64,000 nt of DNA from Clostridium sp. AM22-11AC (GTDB lineage: Bacteria; Bacillota; Clostridia; Lachnospirales; Lachnospiraceae): NCBI RefSeq assembly GCF_003473545.1, contig NZ_QUCM01000010.1:39611-103610 (forward strand). The letters run 5' to 3'. Positions 13,742-59,681 of this stretch are shown in pieces (within the stretch, counting starts at the first letter, position 1; the number at the start of each line of letters is the position of its first letter). The notes beneath the pieces were generated by a model. The model ran no database searches. It had not been told where the DNA came from and saw only the letters and a list, made by a program, of their open reading frames with translations. The position numbers and the translations under genes were made by a program.

Positions 13742-14875
13742 ATGTACGATATCATGACACCCGGCCCAACACAGGTAAGGGAAAATGTACGTCAGGCGAG
13801 AGCGCTTGCCTGCACCAATCCAGATCTGGATGCAGATTTTTATGATTTTTATAAGGAGACCTGTGAAGAGATCAGCGAACTCCTTTATACAAAAAATGAG
13901 ACCCTGATCCTGGACGGAGAAGGCATTTTGGGACTGGAAGCAGCCTGTGCCACTCTCACAGAAAAAGGAGACCGGGTGTTGGTAATGGACAATGGAGAAT
14001 ATGGAAAAGGTTTCGCCGGTTTCGTGACTATGTACGGCGGAGAACCAGTCCTGTATTCCACAGATTACCGCAATGCTTTTGATGTAAAAGCGCTGGAAGA
14101 ATATCTGGAAAAGGATCACGATTTTAAGTATGCAGCCTTAGTGCACTGTGACACTCCAAGCGGTATGTTAAATGATGTTTCAAAGCTTTGTCCATTATTA
14201 AAGAAATATGGTATCCTGACCCTGGTAGACTCCGTTTCCGCCATGTTCGGTGAAGAAATGCGTGTGGATGATTACCGGATCGATCTTCTGTGCGGCGGTT
14301 CCCAGAAGGCAGTTTCCGCACCTCCAGGATTAAGTTTTGTTACCATCAGTAATGATGCTTATAAGGCAATGCGTTCCAGAAAAACACCGGTTGCGTCTTT
14401 CTATGCAAATATCCTGGCATTTGACGGCTACTATGAGAAGCAGTGGTTCCCATATACTATGCCGATCAGTGATATCTATGGTCTGCGTCAGGCCTTTGAT
14501 AATATTAAAAATGATCCGGGCATGTTAGAGCGCCACGCAAAGATCGGTGAAGCAGTGAGAGGAGCGGTAGTGGAAGCAGGACTGGAATTATACCAGGAAA
14601 CCGGTTTTTCCAATACAGTCACTGTATTTAATGTTCCGGAAGGAACCACAGATACAGCCATCCTTACTGCAATGAAGGAAAAATGCAACATTATGTTAGC
14701 AGGTTCTTTCGGTGCTTTTGCAGGAAAGGTGATCCGTATCGGTCATATGGGTGAAAATGCATATCCTGAAAAAGTAGAAGCTGTGATGGCCGGACTGGAC
14801 AGAGTATTTGCAGATCTGGGAATTACATTAAAATGCAGCCTGAAAGAGGCTTATGATAAGAGAATGAATGGATAA
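13742..14875 (+). CDS. Class V PLP-dependent aminotransferase (alanine-glyoxylate / pyridoxamine-pyruvate transaminase-like)
   Basis: A 377-residue cytoplasmic enzyme. It opens with MTPGPTQV, the signature of the serine/alanine-glyoxylate aminotransferase group. The PLP aspartate is in LVDSVSAMFGE and the Schiff-base lysine in GGSQKAVSAPPG (about residue 189). Family members include AgxT, PhnW, PucG and pyridoxamine-pyruvate transaminase. Coupling to an ECF S component suggests a role in salvaging the imported compound, but the substrate remains open. It is followed by a terminator that also serves the convergent DUF378 gene. Confidence 0.82.
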   Translation: MYDIMTPGPTQVRENVRQARALACTNPDLDADFYDFYKETCEEISELLYTKNETLILDGEGILGLEAACATLTEKGDRVLVMDNGEYGKGFAGFVTMYGGEPVLYSTDYRNAFDVKALEEYLEKDHDFKYAALVHCDTPSGMLNDVSKLCPLLKKYGILTLVDSVSAMFGEEMRVDDYRIDLLCGGSQKAVSAPPGLSFVTISNDAYKAMRSRKTPVASFYANILAFDGYYEKQWFPYTMPISDIYGLRQAFDNIKNDPGMLERHAKIGEAVRGAVVEAGLELYQETGFSNTVTVFNVPEGTTDTAILTAMKEKCNIMLAGSFGAFAGKVIRIGHMGENAYPEKVEAVMAGLDRVFADLGITLKCSLKEAYDKRMNG

Positions 14876-17619: not shown

Positions 17620-17645
17620 GAGAAAAAATTGTCCTAAATCTGCCC

Positions 17646-17676
17646 TTGACTCTCTACTTAGTATAGGCTCTATAAT
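17646..17676 (+). promoter_or_regulatory. MerR-type promoter with 19-base spacer and internal dyad
   Basis: -35 TTGACT (17646-17651) and -10 TATAAT (17671-17676) are separated by 19 bases rather than 17. The spacer region carries the imperfect dyad GACTCTCTAC-TTA-GTATAGGCTC with seven of ten matching positions. This is the classical target of MerR regulators, which untwist the spacer. The neighbouring MerR gene ends 27 bases upstream. Confidence 0.7.
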
Positions 17677-17764
17677 GAAAGTACAAAGAAGGTTAATTAA
17701 TTAACAAGCAAATCAATGTTGCCAATGTTATTATTCATGTACATCATTACAAGGAGGTTACACT

Positions 17765-18805
17765 ATGAATAAAGAGAGAATCAGAGTGGTTCAGTACGGA
17801 TGCGGAAAGATGTCAAAATACACACTGCGTTATCTTTATGAGAAAGGCGCAGATATTGTAGGCGCGATCGATGTAAATCCTGCTGTAGTAGGCATGGACG
17901 TTGGACAGTTCTGCGGACTGGGATTTGATCTGGGCGTAAAGATCCGTAACGATGCAGATGCAGTATTGGATGAGTGCCAGCCGGACATTGCCATTGTAAC
18001 CTTATTCAGTTTTGTGGATGACTGCTATGAGCATTATGCAAAATGTTTAAGCAGAGGCATCAATGTAATTACCACCTGCGAGGAAGCAACCTATCCATGG
18101 ACCACTTCCGCAGCATGCACCAATAAATTAGACGTTCTTGCAAAAGAAAACGGCTGTACCATCGTTGGAGCAGGTATGGAAGATATCTTCTGGGTACATC
18201 TGATCGGAACCGTAGCAGGCGGCTGCCATGATATTAAGAAGATCGAAGGCGCTGTAAGCTACAATGTAGAAGATTATGGTCTTGCACTTGCAAAAGCTCA
18301 CGGCTGCAACCTGACACCGGAAGAATTTGAAAAGACCATTGCTCATCCGGAAGTTCTGGAACCATCTTATGTATGGAACTCCAACGAAGCGCTCTGCAAC
18401 CTGATGGGATGGACCATTAAGAGCCAGACCCAGAAGTGCGTTCCATATTTCTCCGATAAAGAAGTTTATTCAGAGACCATGGGACTGACCATTCCGGTAG
18501 GACGCTGCATTGGTATGAGCGCAGTGGTTACGACCGAGACTTTCCAGGGACCAGTGATCGAGACACAGTGTATCGGTAAAGTTTACGGACCAGATGACGG
18601 CGATATGTGTGACTGGAAGATTAAGGGCGAGCCGGATGTTACCTTCTATGTACAGAAACCGGATACACCTGTCCACACCTGCGCAACCATCGTAAACCGT
18701 ATCCCGGATGTAATTATGGCACCTCCAGGATTTATCACCGTAGACAAATTAGACAGCGTAGAATACAGAACTTATCCAATGCATCTGTATGTAGATGAAT
18801 ATTAA
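17765..18805 (+). CDS. NAD(P)-dependent oxidoreductase, dihydrodipicolinate reductase / 2,4-diaminopentanoate dehydrogenase-like
   Basis: A 346-residue cytoplasmic enzyme. The Rossmann dinucleotide loop is [16 protein letters not shown] (about 9-24), followed by GAIDVNP at the second strand. The overall plan, a DapB-like N-terminal domain with a long C-terminal domain, matches 2,4-diaminopentanoate dehydrogenase (Ord), which acts in anaerobic ornithine degradation. No other ornithine pathway gene is present, so the real substrate may be a different amino or imino acid. It has an AGGAGG site and is driven by the MerR-type promoter at 17646. A strong terminator follows. Confidence 0.72.
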
Positions 18806-45248: not shown

Positions 45249-45935
45249 ATGGACCAGCTGGTAGACTCCCTGATGGAGGAATTAAACTGTAATACAGTAT
45301 TTACCATTCCTTTATTTGGCGGGATCGATGTACTGGAATCGGTGGTGGTCACATGGATCATTATGGCCATTATCATGATCGGTTCCCTAATCTGGGTGCA
45401 TGGGCTTAAGATCCGTAAAATAAGCGGAAAACAGGCAGCACTGGAAAGTGGTTTTTCTTTCCTTTATAACTTCTTTCTGGATCTTCTGGGAGAAGAAGGA
45501 AAAGATTACATTCCTTATCTGATCACCGTTGTTATCTACATAGCCATCGCCAATATGATCGGTCTGTTAGGTTTTAAATCCCCCACAAAAGACTTAAATG
45601 TGACCGCGTCTTTAGCTGTTATGAGTATTGTGCTGGTGGAAGCCGCAGGTATCCGGAAAAAAGGTGTAAAGGGCTGGGTGAAAAGTTTTGCGGAACCGAT
45701 CCCCATTATCGCTCCTATTAATGTACTGGAGCTGTTTATCCGGCCGCTGTCGCTGTGCATGCGACTGTTTGGAAATGTGCTTGGCGCAGTAGTGGTCATG
45801 GCACTGATCAAATATCTGCTGCCCTTAGTGGTGCCACTGCCATTTAGCGGGTATTTTGATATATTCGATGGAGTGATACAGGCTTATGTGTTTGTATTCC
45901 TTACATCTTTATATATAAAAGAAGCAATTGAGTAA
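45249..45935 (+). CDS. atpB: ATP synthase Fo subunit a
   Basis: A 228-residue membrane protein forming the stator half-channels for ions. The essential arginine is visible in SLCMRLFGNVLG (about residue 176), and the C-terminal helix has the expected IQAYVFVFLTSLYIKEA. Five or six helices are predicted. It is the first gene of atpBEFHAGDC; no atpI precedes it. ATG 45249 follows GGAGAG. Confidence 0.93.
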   Translation: MDQLVDSLMEELNCNTVFTIPLFGGIDVLESVVVTWIIMAIIMIGSLIWVHGLKIRKISGKQAALESGFSFLYNFFLDLLGEEGKDYIPYLITVVIYIAIANMIGLLGFKSPTKDLNVTASLAVMSIVLVEAAGIRKKGVKGWVKSFAEPIPIIAPINVLELFIRPLSLCMRLFGNVLGAVVVMALIKYLLPLVVPLPFSGYFDIFDGVIQAYVFVFLTSLYIKEAIE

Positions 45936-45971
45936 ATAAACAAAAATTTTTAAACAAAAGGAGAAATCATC

Positions 45972-46196
45972 ATGTCAGGATTAATCGCACTTGGAGCTGC
46001 AGTTGCAGTAATTACAGGAATTGGAGCAGGACTTGGAATTGGTATGGCTACTTCCAAAGCAGTAGATGCTATTGCAAGACAGCCTGAAGCAGACAGCAAG
46101 ATCACAAAGGCACTTCTTCTTGGATGCGCACTGGCAGAGGCAACTGCTATTTACGGTTTCGTTATCGGTCTTCTGATCATCCTGTTCCTGAAGTAG
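45972..46196 (+). CDS. atpE: ATP synthase Fo subunit c
   Basis: A 74-residue hairpin of two helices that forms the rotor ring. The loop is ARQPEADSK and the ion-binding carboxylate is the Glu of LAEATAIYG in helix 2. In sodium-type c subunits a Gln is found in helix 1 and Ser/Thr directly follows the Glu; here those positions are Ile (GLGIGMA) and Ala, although the following Thr and the Tyr are kept. This favours proton coupling, in contrast to sodium-driven anaerobes such as Acetobacterium. Confidence 0.93.
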   Translation: MSGLIALGAAVAVITGIGAGLGIGMATSKAVDAIARQPEADSKITKALLLGCALAEATAIYGFVIGLLIILFLK

Positions 46197-46209
46197 AAAG
46201 GCAGTACAT

Positions 46210-46701
46210 ATGCTAAATATTAATTTTTGGAATATTGCCTTTACGATCATCAACATTGTTGTGCTGTATCTGTTTTTAAAGCATTTCCTTATGAAGCCGC
46301 TGATGTCCATTCTGGAAGAGAGGAAACAGATGGTGGAAAAGGAATTAGATGAAGCGGCTGCTGCTAACAGGGATGCGGGTCTGCTAAAGAAAAAGTATGA
46401 AGTATCCCTTGAAAAAGCAGATGAAGAGGCTGGCAGGATCGTTGCCCAGGCAAAGGAAAGGGCAGGAGAGGAATACGAGAAGATCCTGTCAAAGGCAGAT
46501 GCAGATGCTTCTAAAAAGCTGGAAGATGCAAAGAAAATGATCGATCTGGAAAGAGAAAAGGCATTAAATGATCTTCGTGCTTCTGTTACAGGTCTGGCAA
46601 TGACTGCAACGGCAAAACTTTTGTCTGAGCAGGCAGGACCGGAAAGCGACAAGAAACGTTATCAGGCATTTTTAGCAAGCGCAGGTGAAAAACATGACTG
46701 A
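46210..46701 (+). CDS. atpF: ATP synthase Fo subunit b
   Basis: A 163-residue peripheral-stalk subunit. One N-terminal membrane helix (about 5-26, FWNIAFTIINIVVLYLFLKHFL) is followed by a long charged coiled coil that reaches F1. The length is normal. The next gene, atpH, overlaps its 3' end by eight bases. Confidence 0.93.
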   Translation: MLNINFWNIAFTIINIVVLYLFLKHFLMKPLMSILEERKQMVEKELDEAAAANRDAGLLKKKYEVSLEKADEEAGRIVAQAKERAGEEYEKILSKADADASKKLEDAKKMIDLEREKALNDLRASVTGLAMTATAKLLSEQAGPESDKKRYQAFLASAGEKHD

Positions 46702-47209
46702 GCAGGCAAGATTATACGGAACCGTTCTTTATGAATTAAAGGTACCTGAGAAAATGGTCCGGGAGACCGGGCGCATTTTCCAGGAAAATCCAGAACTTAA
46801 GGCAGTTCTTGATGATCCCACATTGCAGGAAACAAAAAAGGAAGCCATTATTGGAAAAATATGGAAAGAACCTGATTTTTCCAGTACAATGGTTCATTTT
46901 TTAAAGAAGGCCTGTGAGGAAGGCTGCATCGGGCAGATGGAAGATATGATAAAGGTCTGGGAGAAATGTCTGTTAGATGGAGCGGGTATTTTATCAGCCA
47001 GTCTTTTTTATGTGACCAGACCAGATGAGGAACAGCTTGCAGGGATCCTGGAATTTTTGTGCAGGGAATATAAAAAGAAGGATGTGCAGCTTGAAATGGC
47101 TGCTGCTCCGGAACTGATGGGCGGTTTCGTCTTAAAGACCGGAGATGTGGAATATGATTACAGCCTGAAAGGGCAGCTTGAGCGGCTGTTTCAGACTGCA
47201 GGCAGATAG
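46694..47209 (+). CDS. atpH: ATP synthase F1 subunit delta
   Basis: A 171-residue subunit joining the b stalk to the top of F1. The helical N-terminal domain starts [14 protein letters not shown], and the C-terminal part contains the family segment [23 protein letters not shown] (about 144-166). ATG 46694, eight bases after AGGTG, is preferred to the GTG three codons earlier. It overlaps atpF. Confidence 0.9.
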
Positions 47210-47220
47210 GAGTTATTACT

Positions 47221-48759
47221 ATGAGTACAATCAGTTCTCAGGAGATCATCTCCATTATCAAGGGCGAGATCGAAGACTATGACGCTCATGCAGGACAGGT
47301 TAATGAGACTGGTTCTGTGATCTGGGTAGGCGATGGCATTGCCATTGTATATGGTATTGATCATGCCATGTATGGAGAGATCGTTATATTTGAAAACGGA
47401 GTCAAGGGCATGGTCCAGGATATCCGTAAAAATGAGATCGGCTGTATCCTGTTTGGAAAAGATACAGGTATTACAGAGGGAACAAAAGTTACCAGAACAA
47501 AGAAAAAAGCAGGTGTTCCTGTTGGAGCGGCTTTTTTAGGAAGAGTTGTCAATGCCTTAGGAGAGACCATTGACGGAATGGGACCTGCAAAAGAAGAGGA
47601 TTACCTGCCGGTTGAACAGGAAGCACCTGGTATTGCAGAACGTAAATCCGTAGGAGTTCCTATGGAGACAGGTATCCTGGCCATCGACTCTATGTTCCCT
47701 ATCGGACGGGGACAGCGTGAGCTGATCATCGGTGACCGTCAGACCGGTAAAACCTCCATTGCAATGGATACTATTTTAAACCAGAAGGGCAAGGATGTGA
47801 TCTGTATCTATGTTGCCATTGGCCAGAAGGCATCTACCATTGCAAAGCTGGTAAATACATTAAAGAAAAATGACGCCATGGATTACACCATTGTTATGGC
47901 TTCTACAGCCAGTGATCCGGCGCCTTTACAATATATTGCCCCTTATGCGGGAACTGCCATGGCAGAGTTTTTCATGCGCCAGGGAAAAGATGTGCTCATT
48001 GTTTATGATGACCTGTCCAAGCATGCAGTAGCTTACCGTGCATTGTCCCTGTTGCTTGAGCGTTCTCCGGGACGTGAGGCATATCCAGGAGATGTTTTCT
48101 ATCTTCATTCCAGGCTGCTGGAGCGTTCCAGCCGTCTTTCAGATAAACTGGGAGGAGGTTCTATTACAGCCCTTCCTATTATTGAAACACAGGCAGGAGA
48201 TGTATCAGCCTATATTCCTACCAATGTAATATCTATTACAGATGGTCAGATCTTCCTTGAAAGCGACCTGTTTTTCTCAGGAATGAGACCGGCAGTAAAC
48301 GTAGGTCTTTCTGTATCCCGAGTAGGCGGTGCTGCACAGACCAAGGCAATGAAGAAGGCCAGCGGTACCATCCGTATCGACCTGGCACAGTATCGTGAAA
48401 TGGAAGTGTTCACCCAGTTCAGTTCTGACCTGGATGAGGCGACAAAAGCACAGCTGGCTTATGGAAAACGTCTGATGGAACTGTTAAAACAGCCTTTGGG
48501 ACGTCCGCTTTCCATGGCAGAGCAGGTGATTACCCTGTGTACAGCAACCCACAAAGTAATGGTAAGTGTGGATGTAAAACAGATCAAAAAGTTCCAGATG
48601 GATATGCTTGCCTGGTTTGAGGACAAACATCCTGAAATTGGAAATGAGATCACGGAAAAGAAAGTCTTAAGCGATGAGCTGGCAGAACGGATCGTAGAGG
48701 CAGCGAAGGAGTTTAAGGAGGCAGTATGGCAAACGCAAGAGAGATCCAAAACCGAATAA
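47221..48759 (+). CDS. atpA: ATP synthase F1 subunit alpha
   Basis: A 512-residue subunit of the catalytic hexamer. The P-loop is GDRQTGKTS (about 169-177), and the regulatory-site and DELSEED-facing regions are normal ([30 protein letters not shown] region, residues about 261-290). The C-terminus overlaps the start of atpG by 34 bases, an unusually long overlap that implies translational coupling. Confidence 0.95.
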
Positions 48760-49619
48760 AAAGTATTCAGGATACACGTAAGATCACCAATGCCATGTAT
48801 CTGATCTCTTCAACAAAGCTGAAGAAAAGCAAAAAGCTTCTGGAAGATACAGAACCTTATTTTTACACCCTTCAGAGCCTGATCCGGCGTATCCTGCGCC
48901 ATATGGGGGATACAGAGCATCCTTATTTTAATGCCAGAAAAGAGATCAAAGAAGAGGACCGTGTCCGTGGCCTGGTAGTCATTACAGGTGATAAGGGTCT
49001 GGCAGGTGCTTATAACCACAATGTACTGAAACTTGCCCATGAATGGATGGAAAAAAGTGATAAAAACCGTCTGTATGTCGTGGGAGAGCTGGGAAGACAG
49101 TATTTTGCTGCAAGACATGTGCCGGTAGAAGAACAGTTCCACTACACGGTGCAGAACCCTACCATGCACAGAGCCCGTCTGATCGCCTCTTCCCTGATCG
49201 AGGATTATCTGGAAGGACGTTTGGATGAGGTGTGGATCATTTATACGCAGATGATAAACAGCATGAAGGTGGAAGCACAGATGGAGCAGCTTCTTCCCCT
49301 GAAGCAGGAAGATTTCAGCAATGTGGTCATTCCTGCGGATATCCATCAGGAAGAGATCCAGATGGTCCCATCCCCTACAGCGGTCATGGACCATGTGGTG
49401 CCAAACTATGTAACAGGATTTATCTTCGGTGCCCTGGTAGAGTCATTTTGCAGTGAGCAGAATGCCCGTATGATGGCAATGCAGTCTGCCAGCGACAATG
49501 CGGCAGAGCTTTTAAATGAGCTGTCCATTGAATATAACCGGGTGCGCCAGGCTGCCATTACCCAGGAGATCACGGAAGTGGTAGGCGGTGCAAGGGCACA
49601 GCGGAAGAAGCGGAGATAA
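48726..49619 (+). CDS. atpG: ATP synthase F1 subunit gamma
   Basis: A 297-residue central-shaft subunit. The N-terminal coiled coil begins [23 protein letters not shown] (residues 2-24), and the C-terminal helix has [31 protein letters not shown] (residues about 258-288), both hallmarks of gamma. The start lies inside atpA behind AAGGAGG. Gamma couples ion-driven ring rotation to ATP synthesis. Confidence 0.95.
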
Positions 49620-49626
49620 GGAGTAA

Positions 49627-51029
<1,403 letters not shown>

Positions 51030-51030
<1 letters not shown>

Positions 51031-51458
51031 TGGCAGCATTCTGGCTTAAGGTCATAGCCAGTGACCATGTATTTTATAATGGAAACTGCGAGTCCCTGGT
51101 GGTTCCGGCTCATGACGGGGAAGTAGGTATCCTTCCTCACAGAGAGGCTATGATCCTGGCAATCCAGGAAGGAGAACTGCGGTTTCGCGTTCCCGGGGAA
51201 AACCAGTACCGGGAAGCGGTTGTAGGTATTGGGATCGTACAGGTAGCAAATAACCGTGTAACGGTTGTAGTAGATACAGCGGAACGGCCGGAAGATATTG
51301 ACGAAGTCCGGGCCAGACAGGCTTTGGAACGGGCCCAGGAACAGCTTCGTCAGAAACAGAGTATCAGAGAATATTATATGTCAAAAGCATCCATGGCCCG
51401 TGCTCTCAGCCGTTTGAAAGCCAGTCAGCATAAGGGCAGTGAATACCATGGATTATAA
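51030..51458 (+). CDS. atpC: ATP synthase F1 subunit epsilon
   Basis: A 142-residue subunit. The N-terminal ten-stranded beta barrel includes VVPAHDGEVGILPHREAM, and the C-terminal helical hairpin begins after RPEDIDEVRARQALERAQEQL. The C-terminal helices can inhibit ATP hydrolysis. It closes the operon and is followed by short ATAGATCACAT repeats and a terminator. Confidence 0.93.
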
Positions 51459-53658: not shown

Positions 53659-53907
53659 CAAATGGTGCTCTTTGTTTATGGACCAGCCGCTGATCAGCGG
53701 TCGTGTCTATTTATAAAGAGGTAAAAGGGAAGCAGGGGAAGTACCTGCGCGATCTCGTCACTGTAAGCTGTAAAGGAGATCCGGAAAGTTATCATCCAGA
53801 TCCCATGCATATAAAACGTGGATAGAAAGGACAGAATATCCGCCACTGGGAAACCGGGAAGGCAGTTTTGTATGTAGAAAGCAGCAAGCCAGGAAACCTG
53901 CCATTTG
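53659..53907 (+). promoter_or_regulatory. Cobalamin (B12) riboswitch
   Basis: The B12 box AGCCAGGAAACCTGCC is at 53887-53902. Upstream are the conserved AAAAGGGAA core (about 53722), the CACTGTAA element (about 53760), and GCCACTGGGAAACCGGGAAGGC (paired 3' part, about 53841-53862). P1 forms between CAAATGG (53659-53665) and CCATTTG (53901-53907), and CTCTTT pairs with AAAGAG as the next stem. A CCGCTGATCAGCGG hairpin (53687-53700) is an insertion in the 5' arm. High cobalamin should turn the downstream genes off. Confidence 0.9.
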
Positions 53908-54110
53908 TTGGTACAGGAGAAGGTTCATTCCGGGTCACGAGTAATTGATCGTGCCGGTTCTGAAAGATGATCATGGCAATTGTTCCAGTCGTGTTATCAT
54001 GGATCAGGATTTCTGACTCACACAGGAAAATGGACTCCTGCGCCCTGCCGGGAATTTCTTCCGGATCGATACATATTATTATGTGTCTTAGGACAAGGAG
54101 GAAAATGAAA
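53908..54110 (+). promoter_or_regulatory. Expression platform and 5' untranslated region of the cbiK-like gene
   Basis: A 203-base stretch without a gene. CCGGGTCACGA (53930-53940) pairs with TCGTGCCGG (53949-53957) as a strong hairpin, but no T run follows. CCGGGAATTTCTTCCGG forms a smaller one further on. The mode of control, termination or translation, cannot be decided by eye. Confidence 0.45.
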
Positions 54111-55151
54111 ATGAAGTTGAAAAAAGCAATGCTGCTTTTCGCAGCGGCAGCAGTAGCTGCAGGTACCGTAGCAGGATGCTCTGGAAGCGCAAAGGAGACA
54201 ACAGCCGCTTCTGTAGCAGAGACAAGTGCTGAGGAAACAAAAGAAGAGACCACAGCAGAGGAGACCAAGGAAGAGGAAACTGCTGCTGAAGAAGAGGACG
54301 AAGAAAACTACGATACAGGAGATGCAGCATTGGATAACACAAGAAATCAGGATGAGATCGGAGAAAAAGAACTTTTAGTTGTAAGTTTTGGAACCAGCTA
54401 CAATGACAGCCGTCGTTTAACCATTGGTGCTATTGAAGATGCCATCGAAAAGGCAGAGCCGGATTTTTCCGTAAGAAGAGGTTTTACCAGCCAGATCATC
54501 ATTGATCATGTAAAGAAGAGGGATGATGTTACTATTGATAATGTAACAGAAGCTCTGGACCGTGCAGTAAATAATGGTGTAAAGACTCTGGTTGTTCAGC
54601 CAACCCATCTGATGAATGGTCTTGAATATACAGATCTGGTAAATGAAATTGCAGAAAATGCAGACTCCTTTGAGAAGGTTGTTGTAGGTGAACCATTACT
54701 TACATCCGATGATGACTTTAAGGCAGTGATCCAGGCAATTACAGACGCAACCAAGGAATATGATGATGGCGAGACCGCGATCTGCTTTATGGGTCATGGT
54801 ACAGAGGCTGACTCCAACCAGGTATATGCCAAGATGCAGGATATGCTGACAGAGGAAGGTTTTGAGCACTACTATGTAGGTACTGTAGAAGCAACTCCAA
54901 GTCTGGAAGATGTAGTAGCAAAGGTAAAAGAAGGTTCCTATAAGAAAGTTGTATTAGAGCCTTTAATGATCGTTGCCGGTGATCACGCAAACAACGATAT
55001 GGCAGGTGACGAGGAAGGTTCCTGGAAGACCACTTTTGAAGAAGCTGGTTATGAAGTAACCTGCCTGGTAAGAGGTTTAGGTGAGTTAGAGCCGATCCAG
55101 CAGCTGTTTGTAGAACATGCAAAGGCAGCTGTTGACAGTCTTGCAAAATAA
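54111..55151 (+). CDS. CbiK-family sirohydrochlorin cobaltochelatase with lipoprotein signal
   Basis: A 346-residue protein. A lipoprotein signal ends TVAGC (Cys about 23), followed by a strongly acidic Glu/Thr linker to about 70. Residues 85-346 are a CbiK-type class II chelatase: VVSFGTSYNDSRR, VRRGFTS, VVQPTHLMNG, the active-site His of CFMGHGTE (about 224) and AGDHANNDMAGDEEGSWKT (about 285-303). CbiK normally inserts cobalt into sirohydrochlorin in the cytoplasm. Here the signal places it outside the membrane, as reported for some periplasmic or outer-surface CbiK relatives linked to metal or heme handling. ATG 54111 is best spaced from AAGGAGG. It lies under a B12 riboswitch. Confidence 0.85.
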   Translation: MKLKKAMLLFAAAAVAAGTVAGCSGSAKETTAASVAETSAEETKEETTAEETKEEETAAEEEDEENYDTGDAALDNTRNQDEIGEKELLVVSFGTSYNDSRRLTIGAIEDAIEKAEPDFSVRRGFTSQIIIDHVKKRDDVTIDNVTEALDRAVNNGVKTLVVQPTHLMNGLEYTDLVNEIAENADSFEKVVVGEPLLTSDDDFKAVIQAITDATKEYDDGETAICFMGHGTEADSNQVYAKMQDMLTEEGFEHYYVGTVEATPSLEDVVAKVKEGSYKKVVLEPLMIVAGDHANNDMAGDEEGSWKTTFEEAGYEVTCLVRGLGELEPIQQLFVEHAKAAVDSLAK

Positions 55152-55184: not shown

Positions 55185-55219
55185 AAAAGGCGGTCAGAGA
55201 AAATTCTGGCTGCCTTTTG
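55185..55219 (+). terminator. Terminator-like hairpin between the cbiK-like and lipoprotein genes
   Basis: AAAAGGC...GCCTTTT with a further CAGA/TCTG inside. It is followed by only a short T-rich tract, so some readthrough into the transporter genes is possible. A second hairpin, TGCCGG/CCGGCA, lies at 55241-55260. Confidence 0.65.
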
Positions 55220-55295: not shown

Positions 55296-56225
55296 ATGAA
55301 AATAAGAAAATATATACTGTGTGCCGGGATCGTTGGTTTAGTGGGGATGTCTTCCGGATGCGGACAAAAGACAGACAGCGGGGCAACTTCCCAGGCTGTA
55401 AGCGAACAGGCAGATACAAAAGAAAATGCAGAAACATCTGGTGCAGCAGGTGCCGAAACAGAAAAAGAAACGGCTCCTACAGTGCAGGTAGTAACAGATG
55501 ATATGGTGCCTGTTGAAGCAGATGCGTTAAAAGACGGCGTTTATCCGGTAGAGGTGGACTCCAGCTCTTCCATGTTCCACATTACAGAGGCAGAACTGAC
55601 GGTTGCTGATGGAAAGATGAGCGCAAAGCTGACCTTAAGCGGTTCCGGCTATGGAAAAGTATTTATGGGAACCGGGGAAGAGGCAGAAAAAGCAGGGGAA
55701 GGAGATTACATTCAGGCAGAAGAGAGTGCAGATGGAAAGAATGTATTTGAGATCCCGGTAGAAGCCTTAGACAAAGGAATTGACTGTGCAGCTTACAGCA
55801 AAAAGAAAGAAACCTGGTATGACAGGACCCTGGTAGTCCGGGCATCTTCCCTTCCAATGGAAGCCTACAAAGAGGGGAACATGAAAACTGTGGAAAGCCT
55901 GGGCCTGGAAGACGGAACATACACAGTGGAAGTGAAACTGGAAGGCGGTTCCGGCCGTACAACTGTGGAAACGCCAACGCAGTTAAAGATCCAGGATGGA
56001 AAGGCAACGGCTGTGATCACCTGGGGCAGCTCTCATTATGATTATATGAAAGTGGGAGAAGAAAAGTATGAGCCTGTAAATACAGAAGGAAATTCTTCCT
56101 TTGAGATCCCGGTCACTGTTTTTGACCAGAAACAGAAAGTGATCGCAGATACCACAGCCATGAGTGTGCCTCATGAGATCGACTATACACTGATCTTTGA
56201 CTCTGAAAGTATTCAGCCACAGTAA
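55296..56225 (+). CDS. Lipoprotein with two tandem beta-rich domains, unknown function
   Basis: A 309-residue lipoprotein; the signal ends SSGC (Cys about 22). After a Thr/Glu-rich linker come two related domains of about 100 residues. Domain 1 (about 95-195) begins KDGVYPVEV and has FEIPVEALDKG; domain 2 (about 210-305) begins EDGTYTVEVKL and has FEIPVTVFDQK. I do not recognise the family with certainty; surface tetrapyrrole- or metal-binding domains have similar layouts. Its place between an extracytoplasmic chelatase and a BtuFCD-type importer suggests binding or handing over a corrinoid or heme. The lipobox DNA is shared with the next gene. Confidence 0.7.
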   Translation: MKIRKYILCAGIVGLVGMSSGCGQKTDSGATSQAVSEQADTKENAETSGAAGAETEKETAPTVQVVTDDMVPVEADALKDGVYPVEVDSSSSMFHITEAELTVADGKMSAKLTLSGSGYGKVFMGTGEEAEKAGEGDYIQAEESADGKNVFEIPVEALDKGIDCAAYSKKKETWYDRTLVVRASSLPMEAYKEGNMKTVESLGLEDGTYTVEVKLEGGSGRTTVETPTQLKIQDGKATAVITWGSSHYDYMKVGEEKYEPVNTEGNSSFEIPVTVFDQKQKVIADTTAMSVPHEIDYTLIFDSESIQPQ

Positions 56226-56255: not shown

Positions 56256-57512
56256 ATGAAAAAACAGATAAAAAAGAAACTATTAAAAGGATTTCTTCTG
56301 GGAACGCTGACTGTCTGCGTTCTGGGAATGTGCGCTGGATGCGGACAAAAGACAGAAAATATAGAGAATACAGTTACTTCCCCTACAGCACAGGAGCAGA
56401 CAGGAAAAACGGGGCAAAAATCCCTTTCCTGGTCAGAACTAACGCAGACAGGAAGTATGGATCTTTCATATGCGGATCAGTTTTCTGTCACCTACTATGG
56501 GGAAGAAAACTATGCCCTGGTCATTATTGGAGAAGATGAAAAATTCCTGGTAGTGCCGGAAGGAGAGCCGGTACCGGAAGATCTCCCGGAAGATATTACA
56601 CCCCTTTTGCAGCCTTTAACGAATATGTACCTGGCAGCTACTTCTGCTATGGACTTTTTCTGCCATTTGGATGCAGTGGATCAGATCACCCTTTCCGGTA
56701 CAGACCGTTCCGGCTGGTATTTAGAGGAACCGAAAAAAGCTCTGGAAGAGGGAACCATGGAATATGCAGGAAAATACAGCGCTCCTGATTATGAACGGAT
56801 CGTAGATAAGTCCTGCTCCCTTGCCATTGAGTCTACCATGATCTATCATTGTCCACAGGTAAAGGAGCAGCTGGAAAATCTGGGAGTTCCAGTCCTGGTA
56901 GAGCGTTCCAGCTATGAGGCGGATCCTTTAGGAAGGATGGAATGGATCAAGCTGTACGGGGTACTTACAGGAAAAGAGCAGCTGGCAGAGGAATTATTTG
57001 AAAAAGAGATCAAAGAACTGGAAAATGTTTCTGTTCAGGCGGATGAAGGACAGGAACATTCGGATCAGACAAACCAGGGAAAAACAGTAGCCTTTTTTTA
57101 CATTACATCCAAGGGCAGTGCCAATGTGCGTAAGCCGGGAGATTATGTGGCAAAAATGATCACTATGGCAGGTGGCACCTATGTTCCCCAGAGTGCAGAG
57201 GAAGAAGAGGAAAACGCTCTTTCTACCATGAATATGGAAATGGAAGCCTTTTATGCAAAGGCAAAGGACGCAGATTACATTATTTATAACAGTACCATTG
57301 ACGGTGAACTGACCACAATGGATGAATTTCTTGCAAAAAGCCCATTGTTAGCAGATTTTAAGGCAGTTAAAGAGGGACATGTGTGGTGTACAGGAAAGAA
57401 CCTGTTCCAGGAGACTATGGGACTGGGAAATATGATACAGGATATTCACAGGATGCTGACAGAAGAGACACCAGATGAAGGACAGATGCATTATATCCAT
57501 CAACTGAAATAA
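56256..57512 (+). CDS. BtuF/FecB-type substrate-binding lipoprotein
   Basis: A 418-residue class III (helical backbone) binding protein for corrinoids, heme or siderophores. The lipobox is CAGC (Cys about 29). After a linker come NMYLAATSAMDFFCHLDAVDQI (about 127-148), IESTMIYHCPQVKEQLENLGVPVLVERSSYE and TGKEQLAEELF, all usual in this group. Acidic insertions (QSAEEEEEN) are unusual. It is followed by matching permease and ATPase genes. Riboswitch context favours a corrinoid, but heme is possible. Confidence 0.83.
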   Translation: MKKQIKKKLLKGFLLGTLTVCVLGMCAGCGQKTENIENTVTSPTAQEQTGKTGQKSLSWSELTQTGSMDLSYADQFSVTYYGEENYALVIIGEDEKFLVVPEGEPVPEDLPEDITPLLQPLTNMYLAATSAMDFFCHLDAVDQITLSGTDRSGWYLEEPKKALEEGTMEYAGKYSAPDYERIVDKSCSLAIESTMIYHCPQVKEQLENLGVPVLVERSSYEADPLGRMEWIKLYGVLTGKEQLAEELFEKEIKELENVSVQADEGQEHSDQTNQGKTVAFFYITSKGSANVRKPGDYVAKMITMAGGTYVPQSAEEEEENALSTMNMEMEAFYAKAKDADYIIYNSTIDGELTTMDEFLAKSPLLADFKAVKEGHVWCTGKNLFQETMGLGNMIQDIHRMLTEETPDEGQMHYIHQLK

Positions 57513-57529: not shown

Positions 57530-58567
57530 TTGAAGACCAGAGAAATGACGGGAACAGCAAAAAAGCGGATCCATATTGCAGGGGGATTTTTACTCCTGGT
57601 TGTGGCACTGGTCCTGCTTTTTTTCTGGAATATTTATTCCGGAAGTGTAAGTGTAGAACCGAAAGATGTGCTGCGGCTTTTGTTTCAGGGACCGGATGAA
57701 AGTACCCAGGCAAGGATCCTCTGGGATATCCGTTTCCCAAGAGTGCTGGCAGCTATGTTATTAGGCGGCGCCCTGTCTGTTTCCGGATTTCTGCTTCAGA
57801 CCTTTTTTGCAAATCCCATTGCAGGCCCCTTTGTACTGGGAATTTCTTCCGGTGCAAAACTGATGACAGCCCTGGTGATGATATTTCTTCTGGGAAGAGG
57901 GCTGGTGGCAGGTTCCGTTGTATTGATTTTGGCATCTTTTATTGGTGCCATGCTTTCTATGGGTTTTGTGATCCTGATCGCCAATAAAGTGAACAATATG
58001 TCTATTCTTGTCATCTGTGGTATTATGGTCAGCTATATCTGTTCCGCAGTTACGGATCTGGTAGTTACCTTTGCAGATGACTCTAATATCGTAAATCTGC
58101 ATAACTGGTCTTTGGGCAGTTTTTCCGGCATTACCTGGGAAAATATTTCGGTTATGGCAGTGGTGATCTTTTTCTGTATGATCTGTGCCATGTTGATGGC
58201 AAAACCTGCAGGGGCATATCAGTTAGGAGAGATCTATGCAGCCAGTATGGGTGTGAACATAAAGGCGTTTCGCCTGGCACTGATCCTGGTGTCCAGTATC
58301 CTTTCTGCCTGCGTTACTGCTTTTGCAGGTCCGGTCTCCTTTGTGGGGATTGCTGTTCCACAGCTGGTAAAAAGCCTGTTTAAAACAACAAAGCCGATTA
58401 TTATGATACCTGCCTGCTTTTTAGGCGGGGCAGTATTTTGCAGCTTTTGTGACCGGCTTGCAAGGACCCTGTTTTCGCCGGTAGAATTAAGTATCAGTAC
58501 AGTAACAGCTGTGTTTGGAGCGCCGGTGGTTATTTATATGATGATACAGACCAGAGGAAGAAGGTGA
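57530..58567 (+). CDS. BtuC/FecD-type ABC permease
   Basis: A 345-residue permease with nine or ten helices. FecCD signatures are RILWDIRFPRVLAAMLLGGALSVSG (about 64-88), FANPIAGPFVLGISSGAKL and GPVSFVGIAVPQLVKSLF near residue 270. The probable start is TTG 57530, behind AAAGGGG; an in-frame ATG five codons later lacks a good ribosome binding site. Together with its neighbours it imports a metal-chelate such as cobalamin or heme. Confidence 0.87.
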   Translation: MKTREMTGTAKKRIHIAGGFLLLVVALVLLFFWNIYSGSVSVEPKDVLRLLFQGPDESTQARILWDIRFPRVLAAMLLGGALSVSGFLLQTFFANPIAGPFVLGISSGAKLMTALVMIFLLGRGLVAGSVVLILASFIGAMLSMGFVILIANKVNNMSILVICGIMVSYICSAVTDLVVTFADDSNIVNLHNWSLGSFSGITWENISVMAVVIFFCMICAMLMAKPAGAYQLGEIYAASMGVNIKAFRLALILVSSILSACVTAFAGPVSFVGIAVPQLVKSLFKTTKPIIMIPACFLGGAVFCSFCDRLARTLFSPVELSISTVTAVFGAPVVIYMMIQTRGRR

Positions 58568-58571
58568 CAGG

Positions 58572-59681
58572 ATGATGGCAGAAGAAAGAAGCAGTTCTTA
58601 TATTTGTGCGGAAGATATAAGCGTAGGTTATCATAACCTGCCATTGATCCAAAAGATAAACCTTCATGTAAACAGGGGAGAGATACTGACTCTCATAGGA
58701 CCAAACGGCGCAGGAAAATCTACTATATTAAAGAGCCTGATCGGTCAGCTGAAACTGGTAAAAGGGGCAGTGTGGCTGGATGGAACCTCTATGGGGACCA
58801 TGAAGGAAAAAGAGATTGCCCTTCGTATGTCTGTGATGATGACCGGTCGGGTGAAAACAGAGCGGATGACCTGTGAAGAAGTGGTAAGTATGGGGCGGTA
58901 TCCTTATACAGGGAAAATGGGGATCCTGACAGAAAAAGACTGGCAGATCGTAAGGGAGTCTTTAGAACTGGTCCAGGGACTGGAACTGGCAGAAAAGGAC
59001 TTTGAGGCGGTCAGTGACGGTCAGCGCCAGAGAGTCCTTCTTGCAAGAGCCATCTGTCAGGAACCACAGGTCATTGTATTAGATGAGCCGACTGCATTTT
59101 TAGATATCCGGCACAAACTGGAACTTTTGTATCTTCTTAAAAATATGGTGCGGGAAAAGAAAGTGGCAGTGCTTATGTCTCTGCATGAACTGGATCTGGC
59201 CCAGAAGATATCCGATCATATTATCTGTGTAAAAGGGGATAATTCCATTGGCCGCTTTGGTACGCCGGAGGAAATTTTCAGTGGAGATTATATCAAAGAA
59301 CTGTTTCAGATCGAAAAAGGCACCTATCTTACAGATTATGGCAGCGTAGAGTTGGAAGCTGTAAAAGGAGAGCCGAAGGTGTTTGTCATTGGCGGAAATG
59401 GAACAGGGATCCCGGTGTATCGGCAGCTGCAAAAAGAGGGAATTCCCTTTGCAGCAGGTATCCTGTGGGAAAACGACAGGGAATATCCGGTGGCAGAGGC
59501 ACTGGCTTCTGTGGTGATTCGGGAAAAAGCCTTTGAATCGGTCTCAGATGCGACCTTTGAAACTGCGGTAAAGGTTCTTAAAAACTGTGAAAAGGTGATC
59601 TGCTGTATGGAAAACTTCGGAACTTACCAGGAACCTTGCAGACAGTTGTGGAAAATAGCAAAAGATCTTGGAAAAATTTGA
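58572..59681 (+). CDS. BtuD/FecE-type ABC ATPase with C-terminal extension
   Basis: A 369-residue ATPase. Residues 1-250 are a standard importer ATPase: Walker A GPNGAGKST (about 43-51), signature VSDGQRQR, Walker B VIVLDEPTAFLD and switch His in SLHELDLA. Residues 260-369 are an added domain opening VFVIGGNGTGIPVYRQL, which looks like a nucleotide-binding or Rossmann-like fold, with a cysteine pair VICCMEN. The normal family length is about 250-270, so the extension is unusual for a transporter ATPase and may sense substrate or nucleotide. It closes the operon. Confidence 0.85.
   Translation: MMAEERSSSYICAEDISVGYHNLPLIQKINLHVNRGEILTLIGPNGAGKSTILKSLIGQLKLVKGAVWLDGTSMGTMKEKEIALRMSVMMTGRVKTERMTCEEVVSMGRYPYTGKMGILTEKDWQIVRESLELVQGLELAEKDFEAVSDGQRQRVLLARAICQEPQVIVLDEPTAFLDIRHKLELLYLLKNMVREKKVAVLMSLHELDLAQKISDHIICVKGDNSIGRFGTPEEIFSGDYIKELFQIEKGTYLTDYGSVELEAVKGEPKVFVIGGNGTGIPVYRQLQKEGIPFAAGILWENDREYPVAEALASVVIREKAFESVSDATFETAVKVLKNCEKVICCMENFGTYQEPCRQLWKIAKDLGKI

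What the first reader, a model, noticed from the sequence alone, without database searches (positions are those of the whole stretch)
53659..55151. B12 riboswitch controls a membrane-anchored CbiK chelatase
The protein has a clear lipobox, an acidic linker and an apparently intact CbiK active site. Cobaltochelatase work is normally cytoplasmic; an external lipoprotein form would act on tetrapyrroles at the cell surface, inserting or removing metal before uptake. Cobalamin control ties it to corrinoid need.
Basis: partly seen in the sequence, partly recalled or inferred. Interest (0 to 1): 0.75.

Follow-up and report, generated by a model that had tools for sequence, protein, structure and literature searches.

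The report
B12-controlled surface CbiK import operon
A gut bacterium carries a vitamin-B12-controlled set of five genes whose relatives often sit beside B12-making genes in bacteria lacking the known enzymes for the first part of the molecule, which suggests they pick up a half-built ring outside the cell, load it with cobalt there and import it to finish B12.

Summary
A cobalamin riboswitch (53681-53919) precedes a lipobox-bearing CbiK (54111-55151) with intact catalytic residues.

The unit is conserved: all five genes in 61 of 80 related loci (14 more are cut by contig ends), a riboswitch upstream in 66 of 74 testable loci, cbi/cob genes within the locus in 42 of 80. CbiK-NEAT and NEAT-binding-protein fusions suggest sequential hand-over.

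In 50 host genomes CbiD is found in 47; 33 of those 47 show neither HemC nor SUMT, so they should be unable to make precorrin-2. None shows CobN or a separate CbiX; in 45 of 50 the exported CbiK is the only CbiK.

Best reading (0.55): a pre-corrin ring (sirohydrochlorin or factor III) is captured, loaded with cobalt outside the membrane and imported for corrin completion. The substrate is untested. The window's nearest relatives do have precursor enzymes, so its organism may use this as a supplement.

External CbiK is not new (D. vulgaris CbiKP; P. gingivalis IhtB, whose locus reportedly also has a B12 riboswitch). The proposed role appears new.

The parts
53681..53919 (+). Cobalamin riboswitch aptamer (RF00174)
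   Evidence: 60.6 bits, gathering 31.5; same element upstream of CbiK in 66 of 74 testable related loci
54111..55151 (+). CbiK-type class II chelatase with lipoprotein signal, 346 aa
   Evidence: Pfam CbiK 279.5 bits; lipobox VAGC at residues 20-23; His/Glu/His identical in 57 of 57; model mean pLDDT 83.4
54303..54365 (+). Conserved linker motif ENYxTGDAxLDNxRNQDxIGE just before the chelatase domain
   Evidence: 11 of its 21 columns at least 90% identical in 57 sequences; the disordered linker ends here in the model (block mean pLDDT 57 for residues 61-70, 85 for 71-80, 93 for 81-90)
55185..55218 (+). Terminator- or attenuator-like hairpin with T-rich tail between the CbiK and NEAT genes
   Evidence: -21.3 kcal/mol, z -5.1, 0 of 200 shuffles as stable; not listed by the pattern scan
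55296..56225 (+). NEAT-domain lipoprotein, 309 aa; a second NEAT-like beta-sandwich in the model
   Evidence: One PF05031 NEAT match, 37.2 bits against 32.8, residues 71-167; model pLDDT 86.7 with a second sandwich at about 207-308; best Foldseek PDB matches are IsdB, IsdH and IsdX1 (single domains TM about 0.66 by target; two-domain chains rmsd 12-14)
56256..57512 (+). Substrate-binding lipoprotein (Peripla_BP_2), 418 aa
   Evidence: 95.3 bits; no PDB sequence match at E 0.001
57530..58567 (+). FecCD/BtuC-type permease
   Evidence: 271.5 bits; best NCBIfam is BtuC but below its cut-off (193 of 334 bits)
58572..59681 (+). ABC ATPase with C-terminal extension
   Evidence: ABC_tran 99.3 bits; best NCBIfam 'corrinoid ABC transporter ATPase', below cut-off (196 of 537 bits), its match running to residue 348

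Best explanation
The operon is a cobalamin-repressed import system for a pre-corrin tetrapyrrole. The lipoprotein CbiK inserts Co(II), outside the membrane, into a scavenged isobacteriochlorin: sirohydrochlorin (factor II), or trimethylated factor III in hosts without CbiL, possibly after removing another metal. The NEAT lipoprotein and the binding protein pass the cobalt complex to the FecCD/ATPase importer, and the cytoplasmic cbi/cob enzymes complete the corrin. The riboswitch turns the system off when cobalamin is plentiful. Shown by sequence: riboswitch, gene set, export signal, intact site, linkage to cbi/cob genes, gene fusions, and no match for precursor enzymes in many hosts. Inferred: the substrate, extracellular cobalt insertion, transport direction and specificity.
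For: (1) Conserved unit: all five genes in 61 of 80 loci (tblastn E 1e-8); 14 more end within 6 kb of CbiK; 5 lack something with room. (2) Riboswitch upstream in 66 of 74 testable loci. (3) cbi/cob genes within the locus (at most 10 kb flank, many cut) in 42 of 80 (43 have a match, but that of L035 is its SUMT gene). R. flavefaciens YL228 (L014) runs CbiD-F-G-H-J-ET-A-CobT-U-S-CbiB-CobD-CbiP-CbiC-[riboswitch]-CbiK-NEAT-binding protein-permease-ATPase. (4) 50 host genomes: CbiD 47, CobS 49 but HemC 13 and SUMT over cut-off 15; 33 of 47 CbiD-bearing genomes have neither, and 31 of those 33 have no Met8p-type match of 50 bits. (5) CobN 0 of 50; every CbiX-model match lies inside a CbiK gene; 46 of 50 genomes hold one CbiK, and in 45 it is the one with an export-type N-terminus. 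(6) The five genomes of the 50 with a signal-less CbiK all have SUMT, against 10 of the other 45 (Fisher p 0.0014; p 0.006 without G035, whose start is unsure; kinship not corrected). (7) Single-ORF fusions CbiK-NEAT in L065 and L067, NEAT-binding protein in L020, L025, L047, L051, L061 and, cut, L057. (8) Reported parallel: P. gingivalis ihtABCDE joins a CbiK-like lipoprotein to an ABC transporter, has a B12 riboswitch, and that species is reported to lack precorrin-2 synthesis (passages of PMC3764172, PMC10913741, PMC6461909).
Against: No biochemistry. The window's nearest rows in the CbiK tree (L001, L002, L003) have HemC, SUMT and CbiL, so for this organism a need for scavenging is not shown. 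G035 has the operon with riboswitch, HemC, SUMT and a second CbiK but no CbiD and no CbiL match, and its HemC and SUMT genes lie on the operon's contig. Fourteen of the 33 precursor-less genomes also show no CbiL, so sirohydrochlorin alone would not suffice there. Ten SUMT-bearing genomes show no CbiK but the exported one, so something else, perhaps a Met8p-type enzyme, would have to load their own precursor. Known NEAT domains bind heme, and the transporter's nearest named families are corrinoid ones. Eight of 74 testable loci have no riboswitch match. Many hosts are MAGs, and the tool gave no completeness for these handles. No control set of CbiD-bearing Clostridia without the operon was run.
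Confidence: 0.55

Rival explanations
1. Corrinoid scavenging: the operon imports finished cobamides or cobinamide. The exported CbiK fold has become a surface corrinoid-binding or metal-checking protein that hands B12 to NEAT and a BtuFCD-like transporter.
For: Cobalamin riboswitch; best NCBIfam names of permease and ATPase are BtuC and corrinoid ATPase, both below cut-off; hosts have the nucleotide-loop gene CobS (49 of 50).
Against: The CbiK catalytic residues are identical in 57 of 57 sequences, unexpected for a mere binder; in many loci the neighbours are early corrin-ring genes; corrin-ring genes persist in hosts without precursor enzymes, which need another ring source to be of use.
Confidence: 0.22
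2. Heme, siroheme or iron acquisition: CbiK works as a dechelatase like the proposed role of IhtB, NEAT captures the heme, and the ABC system imports porphyrin or iron.
For: NEAT fold with heme-binding relatives; the solved relative FetB is named a heme-binding protein; IhtB is described as a putative heme-binding lipoprotein (PMC10913741 passages).
Against: Cobalamin riboswitch and cbi/cob neighbours (iron genes and Fur sites were not searched for); IhtB is reported not to be regulated by PgFur.
Confidence: 0.12
3. Own-precursor loop: the cell exports sirohydrochlorin as a cobalt-capturing carrier, CbiK loads it outside, and the importer returns it, so the operon is mainly a cobalt-uptake system.
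For: Ten genomes have SUMT but no CbiK other than the exported one.
Against: Cannot apply to the 33 CbiD-bearing genomes without HemC and SUMT. An exporter was not looked for.
Confidence: 0.07

Closest known systems
Porphyromonas gingivalis Iht system (IhtABCDE; IhtB lipoprotein)
   Same: CbiK-like lipoprotein encoded with binding protein, permease and ATPase (PMC10913741); B12 riboswitch reported upstream of ihtA (PMC3764172); host reported to lack precorrin-2 synthesis (PMC6461909)
   Different: Diderm system with the TonB-dependent receptor IhtA; no NEAT protein among IhtA-E; interpreted in the passages seen as heme/iron uptake, though IhtA is also called a BtuB homolog. The only possible iht sequence compared here is FetB 9b86; that FetB is IhtB is recalled
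Desulfovibrio vulgaris periplasmic cobaltochelatase CbiKP (2xvx family)
   Same: CbiK-type class II chelatase, homologous over the domain; periplasmic place recalled
   Different: Recalled as periplasmic, beside a second, cytoplasmic CbiK (title of Lobo et al. 2008 seen as a citation); its gene neighbourhood was not examined
Salmonella CbiK (1qgo)
   Same: Homologous over the whole chain, same catalytic residues
   Different: 264-residue chain without signal or linker; the window protein scores 246 of the 400 bits required by the NCBIfam equivalog model
Tetrapyrrole precursor salvagers of Shelton et al. (PMC6461909)
   Same: Corrin genes without early precursor steps, primarily Firmicutes (section 13)
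   Different: Uptake tested there for 5-aminolevulinic acid (section 14); in the parts read no importer is named for later precursors
Isd/Hbp-type NEAT heme uptake
   Same: NEAT surface protein with an ABC importer (pairing in Isd systems recalled)
   Different: Here with a chelatase, a cobalamin riboswitch and, in 42 of 80 loci, cbi/cob neighbours

Membership tests
CbiK class II chelatases | CbiK domain over the curated cut-off | tested here: met
   279.5 bits against 26.2
CbiK class II chelatases | Two catalytic histidines and acidic ligand | tested here: met
   H229, E260, H292, identical in 57 of 57 sequences; His roles from PMC7689651, Glu role recalled
CbiK class II chelatases | NCBIfam sirohydrochlorin cobaltochelatase equivalog NF047852 | tested here: not met
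   245.6 bits against the 400-bit cut-off: homologous, not assigned the same function
CbiK class II chelatases | Cobalt insertion activity | not testable with these tools
   needs purified protein
Cobalamin riboswitch | RF00174 gathering score | tested here: met
   60.6 against 31.5 bits
Cobalamin riboswitch | Cobalamin-dependent regulation | not testable with these tools
   needs probing or a reporter
Bacterial lipoprotein | Type II signal peptide with lipobox Cys | tested here: met
   VAGC in the window; regex lipobox in 71 of 80 loci, 6 without (L013, L020, L038, L041, L051, L069), 3 cut before it; some regex hits may be type I signals; no dedicated predictor was run
NEAT domain | PF05031 cut-off and NEAT fold | tested here: met
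   37.2 against 32.8 bits for one domain; fold matches. The second domain rests on the model alone
NEAT domain | Heme-ligand tyrosine | tested here: inconclusive
   Y175 and Y297 invariant in 51 sequences, but not mapped onto a ligand position
BtuFCD corrinoid transporter | NCBIfam BtuC / corrinoid ATPase cut-offs | tested here: not met
   193 of 334 and 196 of 537 bits
Tetrapyrrole precursor salvager (hosts) | Corrin-ring genes present, HemC and SUMT absent | tested here: met
   33 of 47 CbiD-bearing relatives; not testable for the window's own genome
Iht-type system | TonB-dependent receptor IhtA | not tested
   none among the five genes of the unit; not searched for elsewhere

The most novel reading that the evidence does not exclude
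Many gut Clostridia begin vitamin B12 synthesis outside the cell: a lipoprotein chelatase loads cobalt into a scavenged factor II or factor III ring, and a dedicated NEAT-ABC importer delivers it to a corrin pathway truncated at its front end. The same logic would solve the P. gingivalis 'enigma' by making Iht a pre-corrin importer and not a heme system.
Probability: 0.45. Interest if true: 0.87.

Novelty: new variant of a known kind. Interest (0 to 1): 0.72.

Why it matters
Bacteria with corrin-ring genes but no way to make precorrin-2 have been a puzzle since P. gingivalis (Roper et al. 2000, seen as a citation and in Shelton's words), and in the parts read of Shelton et al. no importer is named for precursors later than 5-aminolevulinic acid. 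This operon offers a concrete importer and would move the cobalt-insertion step from the inside of the cell to its outside. If true, B12 pathway predictions that count CbiK as proof of cytoplasmic cobalt insertion need revision, gut communities exchange half-built B12 rings as well as finished cobamides, and the function given to P. gingivalis Iht should be re-tested.

Tried and rejected
First idea, rejected: that operon hosts are B12 auxotrophs using CbiK as a corrinoid-binding relic; CbiD in 47 and CobS in 49 of 50 genomes speak against it.

Second idea, rejected: that a cytosolic CbiX or CobN does the cobalt step; CobN 0 of 50, CbiX matches only inside CbiK genes.

Worry that HemC/SUMT absence is MAG incompleteness: CbiD 47 and CobS 49 of 50 come from the same genomes, all 13 HemC genomes have SUMT, and three isolate genomes (R. 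flavefaciens Y1, YL228, ND2009) show it too. The SUMT-model matches of about 120-170 bits below the cut-off are taken as CbiF; this was checked on one. The comparison of 33 of 47 with 201 of 4410 from numbers of Shelton et al. is only a rough yardstick: other methods, other sampling.

On the CbiK tree the SUMT state needs at least 10 changes and the CbiL state 11, so neither loss looks like one lineage; but that tree is weakly resolved (quick method), and the exported/cytosolic split rests on long branches.

Corrected on recount: 43 of 80 loci have a match to a cbi/cob query, but the only match of L035 (29% identity) is its SUMT gene, so 42.

Led nowhere: sequence search of binding protein and NEAT protein against PDB; leader folding and promoter/terminator scan did not settle whether control is transcriptional or translational.

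Not in print, as far as searched: held-library searches with CbiK+riboswitch+lipoprotein, cobaltochelatase+periplasmic+CbiK, NEAT domain+cobalamin+riboswitch (19, 0 papers), CbiK+heme+NEAT (20, 0 papers), cobamide+sirohydrochlorin+salvage+tetrapyrrole precursor, IhtB+Porphyromonas gingivalis+chelatase, Enigma of cobalamin+Porphyromonas gingivalis+precorrin-2 (46), sirohydrochlorin+gut+uptake+corrin ring+CbiK, IhtB+cobalamin, tetrapyrrole precursor salvag+transporter+cobamide. I saw the listings, passages of PMC6593275, PMC10913741, PMC13227078, PMC7689651, PMC12654859 and PMC3764172, and passages plus sections 13 and 14 of PMC6461909; no paper was read whole. PMC12654859 has a sentence calling the cobaltochelatase responsible for transporting sirohydrochlorin as well as for its association with cobalt, without an operon or surface mechanism in the passages seen. 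Subscription papers are mostly not held. Roper et al. 2000 and Lobo et al. 2008 were seen only as citations; their content is recalled or as told by citing papers.

Full report
What is there. The window holds one Rfam match over a gathering score, a cobalamin riboswitch at 53681-53919 (60.6 bits). It ends 191 bases before an ATG at 54111 that opens a 346-residue protein ending at 55151. This begins with a lipoprotein signal (VAGC, Cys 23), has an acidic linker, then a full CbiK domain (279.5 bits). Three database copies (P0022, P0024, P0025) are listed as 394 residues because an upstream start, corresponding to 53967 in the leader, was chosen; that hides the signal peptide. Downstream on the same strand lie a NEAT lipoprotein (55296-56225), a Peripla_BP_2 lipoprotein (56256-57512), a FecCD permease (57530-58567) and an ABC ATPase with a C-terminal extension (58572-59681). 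A stable hairpin with a T-rich tail lies between the first two genes (55185-55218), so the chelatase may be made in excess of the transporter (inference).

A conserved unit. By tblastn (E 1e-8) all five genes are present in 61; in 14 the locus ends within 6 kb of CbiK; five lack one or more genes although there is room: L012 and L022 (permease, ATPase), L029 (NEAT), L041 (binding protein), L069 (all four). A lipobox was found by regular expression in 71 of 80. L013, L020, L038, L041 and L051 have other hydrophobic N-termini, three loci are cut before it, and L069 starts directly at the linker motif, after a gene that I recognise as rlmH (recall), without any signal. A cobalamin riboswitch lies upstream in 66 of the 74 loci with enough upstream DNA: 44 of 50 by comparing places by eye (the six misses checked again on the loci, none), 13 of the 14 loci that are not among the 50, and 9 of 10 (8 of 8) repeats loci of the 50. 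The misses are L005, L015, L020, L047, L051, L056, L067 and L069. L008, L021, L037, L077, L078 and L079 were not scanned for want of upstream DNA.

Linkage and fusions. With queries from R. flavefaciens YL228 (E 1e-15), 42 of 80 loci contain cbi/cob genes within the held flank. In one arrangement CbiP-CbiC precede the riboswitch; in the other cbi/cob genes such as CbiD, CbiC or CbiP follow the ATPase (L059: ATPase match ends at 13768, CbiD match begins at 13786). In L054 the cluster is divergent. The YL228 genes were named by best NCBIfam match; CbiG, CobU, CobD and CbiC stay below their curated cut-offs. CbiK and NEAT are one ORF in L065 and L067; NEAT and binding protein are one ORF in L020, L025, L047, L051, L061 and, cut, L057. 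This is the pattern expected if ligand passes from CbiK to NEAT to binding protein.

Hosts. For 50 of the 80 loci (chosen mainly for long contigs; the tool takes 50) whole genomes were searched. CbiD 47 (missing G027, G030, G035), CobS 49 (missing G039), CbiK 50, one copy in 46, CobN 0, CbiX matches only inside CbiK genes. HemC 13. SUMT over its cut-off 15, the 13 plus G050 and G018. Met8p-type NAD_binding_7 at 50 bits or more in 18. CbiL over cut-off 32; G026, below it (151.7 of 163.25 bits), was counted as present, leaving 17 without. Of the 47 CbiD-bearing genomes, 33 lack HemC and SUMT; 31 of these lack the Met8p match; 19 have CbiL and 14 do not. The general TP-methylase model was run on 16 of the 17 CbiL-less genomes (not G035) and 5 controls: 14 of the 16 show four matches, G039 three, G028 (which has SUMT) five; the 5 CbiL-bearing controls show five each. 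So pathways look truncated at two depths, before CbiL and after it, which would call for factor II and factor III respectively.

Signal-less copies. The second CbiK copies of G004, G019 and G050 (and of G020, outside the 50) lack a signal; that of G035 does if translation starts at MEKKK, its longer frame holding a hydrophobic stretch. With G018 (L069), signal-less CbiK goes with SUMT in 5 of 5, against 10 of 45 others (p 0.0014; without G035 p 0.006; not corrected for kinship).

Mechanism. In 45 of the 50 hosts the only enzyme found of this chelatase class carries an export-type N-terminus; in 33 of 47 the ring-making front end is missing; the ring-finishing enzymes are encoded, in 42 of 80 loci next door; an importer is encoded with the chelatase; and cobalamin is predicted to shut it off. 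The simplest account is capture of a pre-corrin ring, cobalt insertion outside, import, and completion inside. Sirohydrochlorin is the established CbiK substrate and cobalt-sirohydrochlorin the next intermediate (PMC7689651 passages). What is imported has not been measured. Corrinoid uptake with a re-purposed CbiK remains the main rival.

The window itself. No whole genome is held for it. Its binding protein is 99% identical to one from 'Clostridium sp. AM32-2'. In the CbiK tree its nearest rows (G001, G002, G003) have SUMT, HemC and CbiL. In this organism the operon may therefore supplement a full pathway, and the strong argument from missing enzymes belongs to its relatives.

Relation to what is known. 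External CbiK-type proteins exist. The most telling is P. gingivalis IhtB: its locus encodes a TonB receptor and ABC transporter (PMC10913741 passages), a B12 riboswitch is reported upstream of ihtA, called a BtuB homolog (PMC3764172 passages), and the species is reported to lack precorrin-2 synthesis (PMC6461909 passages). The passages seen treat Iht mainly as heme/iron uptake. Putting these reports beside the present operon suggests the same function reached in a diderm; no iht locus was examined here. The family is thus a known kind of protein in a NEAT-containing variant; the proposed role is, as far as my searches went, not in print.

Noticed in passing
P0001-P0019 and others: Proteins of this family of about 550-604 aa with two tandem CbiK domains; in P0008, P0011, P0014 and P0017 the AGDH motif was found in neither domain, in P0012, P0013, P0015 and P0085 in one only.
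   Followed up: partly
53967-54110: Database copies of the window protein (P0022, P0024, P0025, 394 aa) use a start inside the leader downstream of the riboswitch, which hides the lipoprotein signal.
   Followed up: partly
L069 6275-7156: A CbiK of this family without signal peptide, beginning at the linker motif and without NEAT/ABC genes; its genome G018 has SUMT. Natural relocation to the cytoplasm, or an assembly artefact.
   Followed up: partly
G008, G013, G022, G023, G024, G029, G031, G036, G037, G038, G039, G042, G045, G046: CbiD-bearing genomes without a CbiL, HemC or SUMT match: apparent truncation one step deeper, pointing to a trimethylated imported ring.
   Followed up: partly
G035 / L035 (SUMT at about 17641-18327): Operon with riboswitch, HemC and SUMT on the same contig and a second CbiK, but no CbiD or CbiL match in the genome: counterexample to the link with corrin synthesis, or an incomplete genome.
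   Followed up: partly
L100 5007-5216 and CbiK from about 5417: In G050 a second cobalamin riboswitch precedes a signal-less CbiK next to Met8p-type and SUMT genes.
   Followed up: no
58572-59681: The ABC ATPase carries a C-terminal extension of about 110 residues, largely covered by the NCBIfam corrinoid ATPase model; role unknown.
   Followed up: no
45249-51458: F1Fo ATP synthase gene cluster upstream (identified by eye from translations).
   Followed up: no
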